Below, in pieces: positions 43,766-61,285 of a DNA stretch of 64,000 nt. Within the stretch, counting starts at the first letter, position 1; every line of letters starts with the position of its first letter. The notes beneath the pieces were generated by a model that was not told the origin of the DNA, did no database searches, and was given only the letters and a program-made list of their open reading frames with translations. Where the stretch lies: the NCBI RefSeq assembly GCF_001669775.1, contig NZ_LXWK01000011.1, positions 1,054,001 through 1,118,000 on the forward strand. The letters run 5' to 3'. Source of the DNA: Rheinheimera sp. SA_1 (GTDB lineage: Bacteria > Pseudomonadota > Gammaproteobacteria > Enterobacterales > Alteromonadaceae). Made by a program: the position numbers and the translations under genes.

Positions 43766-44692
43766 CTATAACCCGGCTTGCTGCTCCATAAAATTGACTG
43801 ATGGCGCAAAAAAAGCGGCGCCGCAGTCAGCCTGAATAAAATCCAGCAACAAATCATAATTTTGCCCACCTGGCTGTCCCATTCTGTTTTTCAACCAACG
43901 CAGGTACGCCTTGGCATCTGCTGAAAAACCAAGATTCAACATGCCTTGCACTTTTAACTGACCATATGGCATGTTTTGAAATACCAAGGGCAAAGGCTGC
44001 CCTTCTACTGATACACAACTCGCTTTTACTTCATGACTATTATCATCAAGTTGCGCCAAAGCCAGACGCTGACCGTCGATTTTTCGACGCCCCATAATGG
44101 CTTCTTGTTGTTGCTGAGTCAGCTGCTGCCAACGTGTCATATCCAAACGGTAACGCTGAAAATGCAGATAGCTACCACCGGCAAATACCGCATCGTTTTG
44201 TTCTGGAATGAGTGCGAGCTCGCGTTTACGACGTCCTTTCGGTGCATCCGGCTGATCAATAAAACCAGTTAAATCCCGACCGTCCATGTACCTGAACGCA
44301 TGAATTTGTTCCGCCAGTTCAACATGTTGATTGAGAAATTGAAAACATTGTTGTGCAGCAAGATGCAATACGTCGTAGCGATCAGCGCGAATTTGCAGCA
44401 GCAAATCAAAGGGCAGCGCCGGCATATCAAGATCATCAACTGACAATGGCATCCAGGGCTGTAAATCTTTAGGTCTTTGATTTACATACAATGTATCCCA
44501 AAATCCAACTCCGATGGCCACCACTGCTGACAAATTTGATTCCGAAAACTGGTCGGATAGTCTTTGCACCAGTGCAGGCAACCTAGCGAGCTGTAAACGA
44601 ATGGCGGCTTGATGCCCATCCATTGCATTCATCAGCAATACCATGCCGTGTAAGTTTGCTTCGGCACAAATGCCCAACTGTTCGCGTGCCAT
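43766..44692 (-). CDS. Dyp-type heme peroxidase
   Basis: 308 residues. The family signature appears as MDGRDLTGFIDQPDAP, with the distal Asp of the GxxDG-like motif, and a proximal heme-ligand His candidate lies in DDNSHEVKAS. The domain-swapped ferredoxin-like fold is consistent with IGVGFWDTLYVN near residue 60. No Tat or Sec signal is present, so it is cytoplasmic or an encapsulin cargo; no encapsulin gene is in the window. It oxidises dyes or porphyrin-like substrates with H2O2, substrate unknown. It is convergent with argR and divergent from the CsrB-like RNA. Confidence 0.9.
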   Translation of the reverse strand: MAREQLGICAEANLHGMVLLMNAMDGHQAAIRLQLARLPALVQRLSDQFSESNLSAVVAIGVGFWDTLYVNQRPKDLQPWMPLSVDDLDMPALPFDLLLQIRADRYDVLHLAAQQCFQFLNQHVELAEQIHAFRYMDGRDLTGFIDQPDAPKGRRKRELALIPEQNDAVFAGGSYLHFQRYRLDMTRWQQLTQQQQEAIMGRRKIDGQRLALAQLDDNSHEVKASCVSVEGQPLPLVFQNMPYGQLKVQGMLNLGFSADAKAYLRWLKNRMGQPGGQNYDLLLDFIQADCGAAFFAPSVNFMEQQAGL

Positions 44693-44800: not shown

Positions 44801-44818
44801 TGTGAGATATATCTCACA
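44801..44818. promoter_or_regulatory. UvrY/GacA-type response-regulator binding site
   Basis: TGTGAGATATATCTCACA is a perfect 18-bp palindrome matching the inverted-repeat type bound by BarA-UvrY (GacS-GacA) upstream of csrB-family RNAs. It lies about 180 bases before the predicted RNA start, a distance like that of the far upstream site at E. coli csrB. The DNA between it and the RNA (44819-44984) is AT-rich with no gene. Confidence 0.75.
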
Positions 44819-45185
44819 TATCAGTAAGACATGGCAGTTTTTTCTCACAAAAAAAGTTCACGATTCATTTCAAAACACTGTTTTATATAGATATTTTAAT
44901 TTTCTCTCGTTATTTCAATTCAATGACAACTGCAGTGTTCGCTGGCAGCAGCCGCATTTTTACGTAAATTCAACGCATACTATGTTCATCGGATTGAGAA
45001 TAAGTTTTGCCCACATTGGATGTGGTGACTGGATGTCAGTTGTGGTTCGCCAAATACAAACCACAACGCAGTAAGTGCCAGATAGCACAAATAGCAGTGG
45101 ATGCGCAGACAGATTCAGGAAGTTCAGGACGAGCTCTGATTTCGGGATGAAATCAGTATGGAAATGGACGCTTAAGGAAAAGCTT

Positions 45186-45485
45186 GAAATCAGGACGATT
45201 TCATTAAGGACAGTGGACAGCTCAGGATGAGCTTTGAAATCAGGATGATTTCATTAAGGACAGTGGACAGCTCAGGATGAGCTTTGAAATCAGGACGATT
45301 TCAATAAGGACAGTGGACAGCTTAGGACGAGCTTTGAAATCAGGATGATTTCAATAAGGACAGTGGACAGCTCAGGATGAGCTTTGAAATCAGGATGATT
45401 TCAATAAGGACAGTGGACAGCTCAGGATGAGCTTTGAAATCTGGATGATTTCAATAAGGACAGTGGACAGCTCAGGATGAGCTTT
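45186..45485 (+). repeat. Six tandem 50-bp repeats inside the CsrB-like RNA
   Basis: Six copies with an exact 50-bp period, differing at only a few bases. Each unit has hairpin GAAATCAGGATGATTTC, a linker with unpaired AGGACAGTGGACA, and hairpin GCTCAGGATGAGC, giving four GGA sites per unit. Variants (AGGACG, TAGGACG, CTGGATG) mostly keep the GGA. A partial A-type hairpin (GCTTAAGGAAAAGC) precedes the array. The near-identity suggests recent unequal-crossover expansion. Confidence 0.95.
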
Positions 45486-45617
45486 CGTTTTACTCTGTGG
45501 TGGCAGTGTTTTACGTAGCATGGATGTTAAAACCTTCACAGCGCGAATGACTCCGCAAGGAGCAGGGATGAATGACCCGCAAGGGTAACAATATGGATAT
45601 TGTAAAAGTTTTAATGG

Positions 45618-45650
45618 TAGCCGCACTTTTTAGTGCGGCTTTCCTTTTTG
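45618..45650 (+). terminator. Intrinsic terminator of the CsrB-like RNA
   Basis: GCCGCACT-TTTT-AGTGCGGC (45620-45639) is a perfect 8-bp stem followed by TTTCCTTTTT. A short reading frame that crosses it (45572-45754) is not a gene. Confidence 0.9.
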
Positions 45651-45676
45651 TGGAGCTTCACTTTGTACACCACGCT

Positions 45677-45744
45677 CCAACTATCCAACTATCCAACTAT
45701 CCAACTATCCAACTATCCAACTATCCAACTATCCAACTATCCAA
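45677..45744 (+). repeat. 8-bp microsatellite (CCAACTAT), about 8.5 copies
   Basis: CCAACTAT is repeated perfectly about eight and a half times, directly after the CsrB-like terminator. The unit length is not a multiple of three, but no convincing gene spans it. Positions 45745-45941 hold nothing I can identify. Confidence 0.95.
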
Positions 45745-45941
45745 AAATAATTGAACACCCTCCACCACTAGCAGATAGCTATGGCAATTGGATGACAGAT
45801 GACGGCAGACGGATGAAAGATTTTCACTTATGCATTTTTGCTCTTTTCGCCGAATAAATGTACTGCTACATTAGGGGCGTCCAAATTATGAGCAGAAGCA
45901 GCGTTTGAACGAGTAATCGTTTCATGCACTAGCTGAACCAA

Positions 45942-45974
45942 ATAAAAAACCCCGTTAGCATTCACCGACGGGGC
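45942..45974 (-). terminator. Intrinsic terminator of glnK-amtB
   Basis: On the minus strand CCCCGT and ACGGGG (45968-45973 and 45950-45955) form a 6-bp stem with a 12-base loop followed by TTTTTTATTT. It lies 133 bases after the amtB stop, beyond another inverted repeat. Confidence 0.75.
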
Positions 45975-46025
45975 TGTCTGATAAAAGACAAAGGACAAGG
46001 ATAGACGACTTAGTGGGTCAAGTTT

Positions 46026-46069
46026 GTTTGCAGGGTTAACCTCTAGGGCTAGCTGTTAACTCTGCAAAC
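46026..46069. repeat. Inverted repeat in the amtB 3' region
   Basis: GTTTGCAG-G-GTTAAC (46026-46040) and GTTAAC-T-CTGCAAAC (46055-46069) form a 14-bp stem with one mismatch and a 14-base loop. No T run follows, so it is not an obvious terminator. It would be transcribed in the amtB 3' untranslated region. Confidence 0.7.
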
Positions 46070-46106
46070 CGCTCCCGACAGATCCCCACCGAACCTGCCA
46101 GACTGC

Positions 46107-47378
46107 TTACTTCGACGATGCAACAAACTCAGGATAGGCTTCGATGCCACATTCTGAACGGTCTACACCATCATATTCTTCCTGTTCAGTGACACGGATC
46201 CCGATCACCAACTTCAACACATACCAAACGACCAGGCTGGTAATGAATACCCAGAAGAAAATCGTCGCCGCGCCAACCAGTTGACCGGTGAACGAAGCAG
46301 ATTCTTTAGTCACTGGGACAATCATTAAGCCAAACAAACCTACGACACCGTGCACCGAAATCGCACCAACCGGATCATCAATTTTCAGTTTATCCAAGCC
46401 GATGATTGAGCACACCACCAACACACCACCCACAGCACCAAATACAGTCGCTAACAATGGCGTTGGTGTTGAAGGTTCAGCCGTGATAGCGACCAGACCT
46501 GCTAATGCACCGTTTAATACCATGGTTAAATCTGCTTTACGGAACAACAGCATCGACATACAAAGTGCTGCTAACGCACCACCGACTGCAGCCATGTTGG
46601 TGTTCACGAAGACCATCGCCACGCCATGCGCATTACCGATATCACCTAGTTTTAACATGGAGCCACCGTTAAAACCAAACCAGCCCAACCACAAAATTAA
46701 CGTACCTAAAGTGGCCATTGGCATATTCGCACCAGGGAAAGCATGTGCTTTGCCATCTTTGCCGTATTTACCTTTACGAGCACCAAGCAGTAACACACCC
46801 GCTAATGCTGCTGCACCGCCGGCCAGATGCACAATGCCAGAGCCGGCAAAATCAGAGAATCCAAAATCCGCTAAGGTGTACAAGCCAAACACCGCTTGGC
46901 CGCCCCAGGTCCATGAACCTTCCATTGGATAGATAAATCCACACATCACCACTGCAAAGGCGAAGAATGCCCAAAGCTTCATCCGCTCGGCAACAGCACC
47001 TGAAACAATCGACATCGCCGTGGCGACAAACACCACCTGGAAGAAGAAATCAGAGGCTTTGGAGTAAATCGCTTTACCGGTGAAACCGTTTTCACGTTCA
47101 GCAAAACCCGCTAAAGTTGCATCAACATCAATAGCTTCGATACCGCTTAAGAAAAAACCACCGCCGTACATAAATTGATAGCCACAGACCAGATACATCA
47201 GGCAGGCTATGGCGTACAACGCAAAGTTCTTCGTCAGAATTTCGGTGGTATTTTTAGAGCGAACCAGACCGCCTTCCAGCATGGCGAAACCAGCTGCCAT
47301 CCACATCACTAAGGCGCCACACACCAGAAAATAGAAGGTGTCCATGGCATACTGTAAATGGAAAATTTGTTCTTGCAT
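46107..47378 (-). CDS. amtB: Ammonium transporter AmtB
   Basis: 423 residues with 11 predicted transmembrane helices. The N-terminus lacks a clear cleavable signal. Conserved elements include FAMLEGGLVRSKN, DFAGSGIVHLAGG (first pore His), GWFGFNGGS and ISVHGVVGLFGLM (second pore His). It conducts ammonium/ammonia across the inner membrane and is blocked by GlnK, the upstream gene 9 bases away. AGGAG precedes the start codon. Confidence 0.96.
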   Translation of the reverse strand: MQEQIFHLQYAMDTFYFLVCGALVMWMAAGFAMLEGGLVRSKNTTEILTKNFALYAIACLMYLVCGYQFMYGGGFFLSGIEAIDVDATLAGFAERENGFTGKAIYSKASDFFFQVVFVATAMSIVSGAVAERMKLWAFFAFAVVMCGFIYPMEGSWTWGGQAVFGLYTLADFGFSDFAGSGIVHLAGGAAALAGVLLLGARKGKYGKDGKAHAFPGANMPMATLGTLILWLGWFGFNGGSMLKLGDIGNAHGVAMVFVNTNMAAVGGALAALCMSMLLFRKADLTMVLNGALAGLVAITAEPSTPTPLLATVFGAVGGVLVVCSIIGLDKLKIDDPVGAISVHGVVGLFGLMIVPVTKESASFTGQLVGAATIFFWVFITSLVVWYVLKLVIGIRVTEQEEYDGVDRSECGIEAYPEFVASSK

Positions 47379-60676: not shown

Positions 60677-60696
60677 AAAGGATGCAGACTGAATTC

Positions 60697-61285
60697 GATG
60701 GCGTACTGCCTTCGGCGAGTACGCCCTACTTTTTGTATTTAAATTCATAAGCTTACCGTAGGGCGCTACTCGCCGCGTCAGCGGCAGTACGCCGGATTAG
60801 AGATTCTCAGCGAACTTCGATGGCGTACTACCTTCGGTGAATCCGCCCTACTTTTTGTATTTAAATTCATAAGCTTACCGTAGGGCGCTACTCGCCGCGT
60901 CAGCGGCAGTACGCCGGATTAGAGATTCTCAGCGAACTTCGATGGCGTACTACCTTCGGTGAATCCGCCCTACTTTTTGTATTTAATTTCATAAGCTTAC
61001 CGTAGGGCGCTACTCGCCGCGTCAGCGGCAGTACGCCGGATTAGAGATTCTCAGCGAACTTCGATGGCGTACTACCTTCGGTGAATCCGCCCTACTTTTT
61101 GTATTTAATTTCATAAGCTTACCGTAGGGCGCTACTCGCCGCGTCAGCGGCAGTACGCCGGATTAGAGATTCTCAGCGAACTTCGATGGCGTACTACCTT
61201 CGGTGAATCCGCCCTACTTTTTAATTTAAATTCAAATATTTACCGTAGTGCGCTACTCGCCGCGTCAGCGGTAGTAGGCCATTAC
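60697..61285. repeat. Tandem array of five 122-bp REPIN-like units
   Basis: Units start at 60697, 60819, 60941, 61063 and 61185, an exact 122-bp period; the last is diverged. Each contains two REP-type hairpins in opposite orientation (GGCGTACTGCCTTCGG-type and its variant ending GCGGCAGTACGCC) around an AT-rich centre with TTTTTGTATTTAAATTC. The first unit has GGCGAGTACGCC where the others read GGTGAATCCGCC. The array lies beside a RAYT transposase gene, as REPs usually do. Confidence 0.93.

What the first reader, a model, noticed from the sequence alone, without database searches (positions are those of the whole stretch)
44985..45650. Unusually large CsrB-like RNA hidden in a 1.4-kb gap
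About 38 GGA trinucleotides in roughly 650 nt, many in hairpin loops, with CAGGA(T/C)G recurring, then a perfect terminator. This is the CsrA-sponge architecture. The reading-frame content is negligible. At about 660 nt it would be nearly twice the E. coli RNA and could bind many CsrA dimers.
Basis: partly seen in the sequence, partly recalled or inferred. Interest (0 to 1): 0.85.

Follow-up and report, generated by a model that had tools for sequence, protein, structure and literature searches.

The report
Giant tandem-repeat CsrA-sponge RNA
This stretch of a Rheinheimera genome very probably makes a roughly 660-letter regulatory RNA that soaks up the global regulator CsrA, built largely from head-to-tail copies of one 50-letter two-hairpin module whose number and sequence differ between related species.

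Summary
In detail: 44985-45650 has 38 GGA (dinucleotide shuffles 18.7±3.1), mostly exposed in the predicted fold, before a strong terminator. The reading is supported: a CsrB-type CsrA-sequestering RNA. Rfam CsrB matches at E=3e-15 but at 59.8 bits, below the 71-bit gathering score; none of 246 family genomes sampled reaches it. The genome has one near-E. coli CsrA, UvrY beside uvrC, and a BarA-like kinase. A perfect UvrY box lies about 178 nt before the inferred start, the pattern's only match in the genome. One Rheinheimera clade (10 of 22 genomes) has such arrays at this locus (539-704 nt, 33-43 GGA in the nine measurable); the other 12 have an array-free RNA of 327-329 nt with 21-23 GGA. 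Stems covary between species; interior modules look partly homogenised within some species, not others. Size alone is not unique: an unrelated genome has an 11-module array with 55 GGA. Transcription and CsrA binding are untested. New variant of a known kind.

The parts
44801..44818 (.). UvrY/GacA-type box TGTGAGATATATCTCACA (perfect palindrome), upstream activating site
   Evidence: Found in 21 of 22 genus loci, one of them (G003) with a single change; the 22nd (G020) is cut off by its contig start. The only match to TGTRAGN6CTYACA in the own genome (the reversed control pattern also matches once). E. coli csrB has TGTGAGAGATCTCTTACA at -183/-182 (PMC4682653 passages; sequence)
44976..44981 (+). 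-10-like hexamer CATACT, 175 nt after the start of the UvrY box; start of the RNA inferred at about 44988
   Evidence: Spacing 175-177 nt in the 21 loci that could be measured; the scan found no sigma-70 consensus promoter, so the start is inferred
44988..45645 (+). csrB-like RNA gene (about 657-661 nt)
   Evidence: GGA number, accessibility and folding energy; RF00018 hits 45268-45634 and 45140-45251; terminator
45117..45214 (+). two divergent 5' edge modules of the array (49 nt each)
45215..45464 (+). five near-identical 50-nt modules (0-2 differences from the consensus), typically hairpin AGCUC-AGGAU-GAGCU, hairpin UUGAAAUC-AGGAU-GAUUUCAA and a linker with two GGA
45465..45485 (+). partial last module (first hairpin only)
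45497..45645 (+). 3' domain: near-invariant block at 45522-45544 (GGATGTTRAAACCTTCACAGCGC, 22 of 23 positions the same in 10 of 10 array-clade species), short hairpins, A/U-rich stretch, terminator
   Evidence: model R1 matches 10 of 22 genus genomes; motif with up to 3 mismatches in 5 of 246 family genomes, all of this genus
45619..45640 (+). intrinsic terminator stem-loop AGCCGCACTTTTTAGTGCGGCT followed by a T-rich run

Best explanation
A UvrY-activated, CsrB-type sponge RNA. Inferred: phospho-UvrY (from a BarA-like kinase) binds the palindrome at 44801-44818 and switches on a roughly 660-nt RNA. Each 50-nt module presents two AGGA loops 18 nt apart, within the range that one CsrA dimer can bridge, plus two GGA in the linker, so successive modules load successive CsrA dimers and strip them from mRNAs. 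At most about 19 dimers could be held if all 38 GGA served. The body was built by tandem duplication of the module in one Rheinheimera clade and has since changed in copy number and been partly homogenised, by recombination or slippage. Shown: sequence, covariation, synteny, promoter element, presence of CsrA and UvrY genes. Predicted: the fold. Inferred: transcription, CsrA binding, any dosage effect, and RNase E decay from the A/U-rich stretch before the terminator (by analogy with E. coli CsrB).
For: RF00018 E=3e-15. 38 GGA, twice the shuffle mean and above all shuffles; GGA unpaired probability 0.78 against at most 0.63 in 100 shuffles. Across 55 modules of 10 species stems pair in 90.9% (hairpin A) and 92.8% (hairpin B, 53 modules) of cells, against at most 78.9% and 79.9% in 1000 shuffles of whole arms, with different compensated stems in different species (AGCTC/GAGCT, GCTAC/GTAGC, GCTTC/GAAGC; GAAATC/GATTTC, GGTATC/GATACC, GGTTTC/GAAACC). 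UvrY box kept at fixed spacing while most of the DNA between box and -10 is not conserved; single match in the genome. One CsrA with one change from E. coli CsrA (1y00) over residues 2-55. UvrY 64% identical and followed by uvrC. SELEX consensus RUACARGGAUGU, hairpin-loop preference, bridging of sites 10-63 nt apart (PMC7652899 passages); [quoted passage not shown] coli (PMC5027483 passages).
Against: No RNA or binding data. Below the Rfam gathering score. No consensus sigma-70 promoter by scan. In the whole-RNA MFE only 11 of 38 GGA are wholly in hairpin loops, and repeat copies pair with each other's arms there. The arm shuffles ignore relatedness of the modules, and a register slid by -1 still pairs 72% of hairpin B cells. 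The BarA-like protein is 41% identical, one of 107 kinase/receiver matches. One chance match of the UvrY-box pattern per genome is about what the reversed control gives; its place and conservation are the evidence.
Confidence: 0.93

Rival explanations
1. The tandem array is a DNA-level repeat (minisatellite or protein-binding iterons) that happens to be GGA-rich, and no functional sponge RNA is made.
For: Microsatellites lie just downstream of the terminator in 5 of 10 array species, so the locus tolerates repeat expansion.
Against: Compensated stem changes around kept GGA loops, UvrY box at fixed spacing, conserved 3' domain and terminator, CsrB covariance-model hit, a GGA-rich CsrB-like RNA without array at the same locus in the other 12 genus genomes.
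Confidence: 0.04
2. The array encodes a repetitive protein.
For: Some ORFs touch the region, such as 78 aa on the minus strand at 45390-45626.
Against: 37 of 55 modules have a length that is not a multiple of three (47-52 nt); no ORF of 60 aa or more runs through the array on the + strand; changes keep stems and GGA loops.
Confidence: 0.01
3. It is a sponge RNA, but the array has no dosage meaning: extra modules are drift, and CsrA titration is set by promoter strength and decay.
For: The sister clade has 327-329 nt and 21-23 GGA at the same locus; copy number varies between species without a pattern that I could see.
Against: GGA density (5.4-6.8 per 100 nt), loops and stems stay intact through module turnover.
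Confidence: 0.35

Closest known systems
CsrB of Escherichia coli K-12 (RF00018; L088)
   Same: 22 GGA in 369 nt, about 6 per 100 nt; CAGGA(T/C)G-type motifs; UvrY box centred about 180 nt upstream; intrinsic terminator with an unstructured stretch before it (PMC5027483 passages)
   Different: About 660 nt and 38 GGA here; TRF finds no array in the E. coli locus; different neighbours (syd and yqcC in E. coli)
csrB-like RNA of the other 12 Rheinheimera-group genomes (e.g. G015, G009)
   Same: Same amtB/DyP locus, same UvrY box and spacing
   Different: 327-329 nt, 21-23 GGA, no tandem array (12 of 12 by TRF), no match to 3' domain model R1
Pf1, Pf2, Pf3 of Pseudoalteromonas fuliginea (PMC11882849; sections 6 and 7 read, other passages by find)
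   Same: Csr sponge RNAs with a conserved upstream element; Pf2 and Pf3 shown there to bind CsrA
   Different: 25, 21 and 9 GGA; the parts that I saw describe no module array
   Same: 11 head-to-tail 51-52-nt modules with two hairpins with GGA loops each
   Different: Other module sequence, other family of the same order, 55 GGA; probably an independent expansion (inference)
Multi-copy csrB genes of Vibrio (PMC6262261, passages)
   Same: More sponge RNA by duplication
   Different: Whole genes are duplicated there, not modules inside one RNA

Membership tests
CsrB/RsmB RNA (Rfam RF00018) | Score at or above Rfam's gathering threshold (71 bits) | tested here: not met
   59.8 bits, E=3e-15; 0 of 246 genomes of the family reach it, under the stricter filters of that search, so the threshold seems too strict for this group
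CsrB/RsmB RNA (Rfam RF00018) | Significant match to the sequence/structure model | tested here: met
   E=3e-15 on 45268-45634 and 5.6e-4 on 45140-45251
CsrA-sequestering sRNA (functional class CsrB/CsrC/RsmY/RsmZ) | Many GGA, preferentially in hairpin loops or unpaired | tested here: met
CsrA-sequestering sRNA (functional class CsrB/CsrC/RsmY/RsmZ) | GacA/UvrY-type upstream palindrome | tested here: met
   binding of UvrY itself not tested
CsrA-sequestering sRNA (functional class CsrB/CsrC/RsmY/RsmZ) | CsrA with its RNA-binding residues in the genome | tested here: met
   one CsrA, L4 and R44 present in the translation; L4 and R44 as critical residues from a figure legend of PMC7652899
CsrA-sequestering sRNA (functional class CsrB/CsrC/RsmY/RsmZ) | Independent transcript with intrinsic terminator | tested here: inconclusive
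   terminator found; start only inferred; no RNA data
CsrA-sequestering sRNA (functional class CsrB/CsrC/RsmY/RsmZ) | Binds CsrA and relieves its targets | not testable with these tools
   needs EMSA, pulldown or a reporter

The most novel reading that the evidence does not exclude
In this clade the CsrA sponge has become an evolvable repeat array: its two-hairpin 50-nt module is gained, lost and homogenised by recombination, so that module number acts as a genetic dial for free CsrA, possibly varying even between strains of one species. Probably independent arrays in other genera (11 x 51-52 nt in G036, 26-nt repeats in G023) suggest a recurrent route to larger sponges, alternative to duplicating whole csrB genes.
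Probability: 0.35. Interest if true: 0.75.

Novelty: new variant of a known kind. Interest (0 to 1): 0.5.

Why it matters
CsrB-family RNAs are described as 100 to more than 400 nt long (PMC6262261 passage). Here one clade has a length-variable module array behind the same UvrY box where its sister clade has an RNA fixed at 327-329 nt. That is a natural series of sponge sizes (21-23 against 33-43 GGA) for asking how the number of sites sets CsrA titration. It also suggests that annotation by Rfam's gathering score overlooks the CsrB RNAs of this family: of 246 genomes sampled, 66 have a match at E<=0.001 and none is over the cut-off.

Tried and rejected
Whole-window Rfam scan at gathering scores found nothing; only E-value mode showed CsrB. 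A first regular-expression cut of modules missed copies and was replaced by an edit-distance cut. MAFFT placed a gap inside hairpin A in an alignment of 24 of the 55 modules, so pairs were counted on arms anchored to GGA (all 55 modules for hairpin A, 53 for hairpin B, two dropped because they did not have exactly one GGA in the expected interval; hairpins with six-nt loops are counted there as if the loop had five, which lowers the percentage). A second Csr RNA in the own genome was sought with RF00018 at E<=10: one further hit at E=7.1, taken as chance and not examined.

Against homogenisation: modules of G003 and G010 are less alike within (0.76, 0.76) than between the two species (0.79); G017 modules are less alike among themselves (0.81) than to those of G019 (0.86); for G000 and G005 the difference is modest (0.84 and 0.80 within, 0.78 between). 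In the module tree G003 and G010 are not clustered by species at all (500 of 500 shuffles as low) and G017 hardly (58 of 500); most forks are unresolved.

The near-invariant 3' block is unexplained. Paper searches (open-licence library only): Rheinheimera+CsrB, none; CsrB+tandem repeat, 14 papers, listing seen, one opened; Csr sRNA+Alteromonadales+GGA, none; CsrA+concerted evolution, 2, unrelated by title; CsrA/RsmA+tandem repeats/VNTR and others, 86 papers with 4 of 6 terms, 10 listed; some searches gave background. None of what I saw describes a tandem-module Csr RNA; that is not proof that none is in print.

Full report
WHAT IS THERE. The window lies in a Rheinheimera genome: the nearest named match of the neighbouring DyP-type peroxidase gene is R. 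riviphila at 97%. Between that gene (43766-44692, minus) and amtB (46107-47378, minus) is a 1414-nt gap. The + strand of the gap holds 38 GGA in 44985-45650. Shuffles of 44985-45645 give 18.7±3.1 GGA, at most 27 in 100, and the mean unpaired probability of GGA is 0.78 against 0.455±0.058, at most 0.628. A 9-pair terminator stem stands at 45619-45640.

IDENTITY. At gathering thresholds Rfam reports nothing in the window. With E-value reporting, RF00018 CsrB matches 45268-45634 at E=3e-15, 59.8 bits, below the 71-bit gathering score. This is not peculiar to the window: 66 of 246 sampled genomes of the family have an RF00018 match at E<=0.001 and none reaches the gathering score; that search used Infernal's stricter filters, which lose weak matches. 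I therefore do not file it as a curated RF00018 member, but as a CsrB-type CsrA-sequestering RNA by architecture and likely descent.

PROMOTER AND CIRCUIT. 44801-44818 reads TGTGAGATATATCTCACA. E. coli csrB has TGTGAGAGATCTCTTACA centred at -183/-182, a site shown to bind UvrY (PMC4682653, passages; sequence). Here the centre lies about 178 nt before the inferred start. The box is in 21 of 22 genus loci (one with a single change; the 22nd is cut off by its contig start), and the distance from box to -10 is 175-177 nt in those 21, although much of the DNA between is not conserved in the nine array-clade loci aligned. In the own genome TGTRAGN6CTYACA occurs once, here; the reversed control pattern also occurs once, so one chance match is to be expected, and it is place and conservation that count. 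The genome has one CsrA with a single change from the E. coli chain 1y00 over residues 2-55, a UvrY at 64% identity followed by uvrC, and a best BarA match of 41% over nearly the full length.

THE MODULE ARRAY. TRF finds 6.0 copies of a 50-nt unit at 45184-45485; cut by edit distance there are seven modules from 45117 to 45464 and a partial one. Each interior module has two hairpins with GGA in a five-nt loop, 18 nt apart from GGA to GGA, and a linker with two more GGA. CsrA is reported to bridge sites 10-63 nt apart (PMC7652899, passages). In 10 of 22 genus genomes the same locus has an array of 49-52-nt units with 3.8-7.4 copies, one of them (G020) cut by its contig start, and the same 10 match the 3' domain model R1, which was built from six of them and the window. 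Their RNAs measure 539-704 nt with 33-43 GGA in the nine that could be measured. The other 12 genomes have at the same place an RNA of 327-329 nt with 21-23 GGA in which TRF finds no array, 12 of 12. On an amtB tree the array carriers are one side of a branch with 100/100 support; without an outgroup, gain and loss cannot be told apart, so that the array arose in their ancestor is an inference.

SELECTION ON RNA STRUCTURE. Across modules of the 10 species, hairpin A pairs in 90.9% of cells (55 modules) and hairpin B in 92.8% (53). Shuffling whole arms among modules gives at most 78.9% and 79.9% in 1000 shuffles, and slid registers 23-72%. Species differ by compensated stems around the same loop. 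The shuffles ignore relatedness, but several different compensated stems exist.

TURNOVER. On a tree of single modules the ten species labels need 20 changes against a shuffled mean of 40.7, as low in 0 of 200. The first modules of G003 and G010 pair across species with starred support; those of G000 and G005 lie in one unresolved fork, and their second modules fall together with G020 modules in a starred group. Interior modules of G000, G020, G012, G007 and G018 tend to group by species. Divergent edges and alike interiors are what unequal exchange would give. The pattern is not general: G003 and G010 modules are more alike between than within the two species, G017 modules are closer to those of G019 than to each other, and the difference between G000 and G005 is modest. 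The modules are short, so support is limited.

HOW UNUSUAL. I saw no UvrY box of the window's form in the part of L074 that I read, but did not search for one. A 26-nt repeat array is in G023. So large and repetitive Csr-like RNAs recur, and the window's RNA is one case. None of the papers that I saw describes such arrays, in an open-licence library only.

LIMITS. Nothing here shows transcription or binding. Array lengths come from assemblies and may be misjudged where reads are short; in G020 the contig begins inside the array and in L003 it ends inside one. The start of the RNA is inferred from a -10-like hexamer, and the scan found no consensus promoter.

Noticed in passing
45676-45744: TCCAACTA microsatellite (8.6 copies, 100%) just after the csrB terminator; exact runs of at least three 5-9-nt units lie within 350 nt of the terminator in 5 of 10 array-clade species (TCCAACTA, TCACCAAT, TGGTTTC twice, ACCAAC) and in 0 of 12 no-array species. 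The locus may be prone to slippage in this clade.
   Followed up: partly
60694-61280: 4.8 copies of a 122-nt unit at 96%; the unit gives 42 matches, whole or partial, in the own genome, so it looks like a dispersed REP-like element (name recalled) that was locally amplified.
   Followed up: partly
about 45936-46106: The 3' flank of amtB (minus strand) matches in all 21 other genus genomes compared (79-98% over 76-180 nt); the best Rfam match in 45700-46250 has E=0.14. Possibly a 3'UTR-derived RNA or only a terminator.
   Followed up: partly
45522-45544: 3' block GGATGTTRAAACCTTCACAGCGC: 22 of 23 positions the same in 10 of 10 array-clade species; with up to 3 mismatches the 29-nt motif around it is in 5 of 246 family genomes, all of this genus. 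More conserved than CsrA binding would seem to need; role unknown.
   Followed up: partly
   Followed up: no
L126 (G088), 1323-1882 on the reverse strand: A GGA cluster at a CsrB-like hit with 47 GGA in 560 nt and degenerate 23/44-nt repeats.
   Followed up: no
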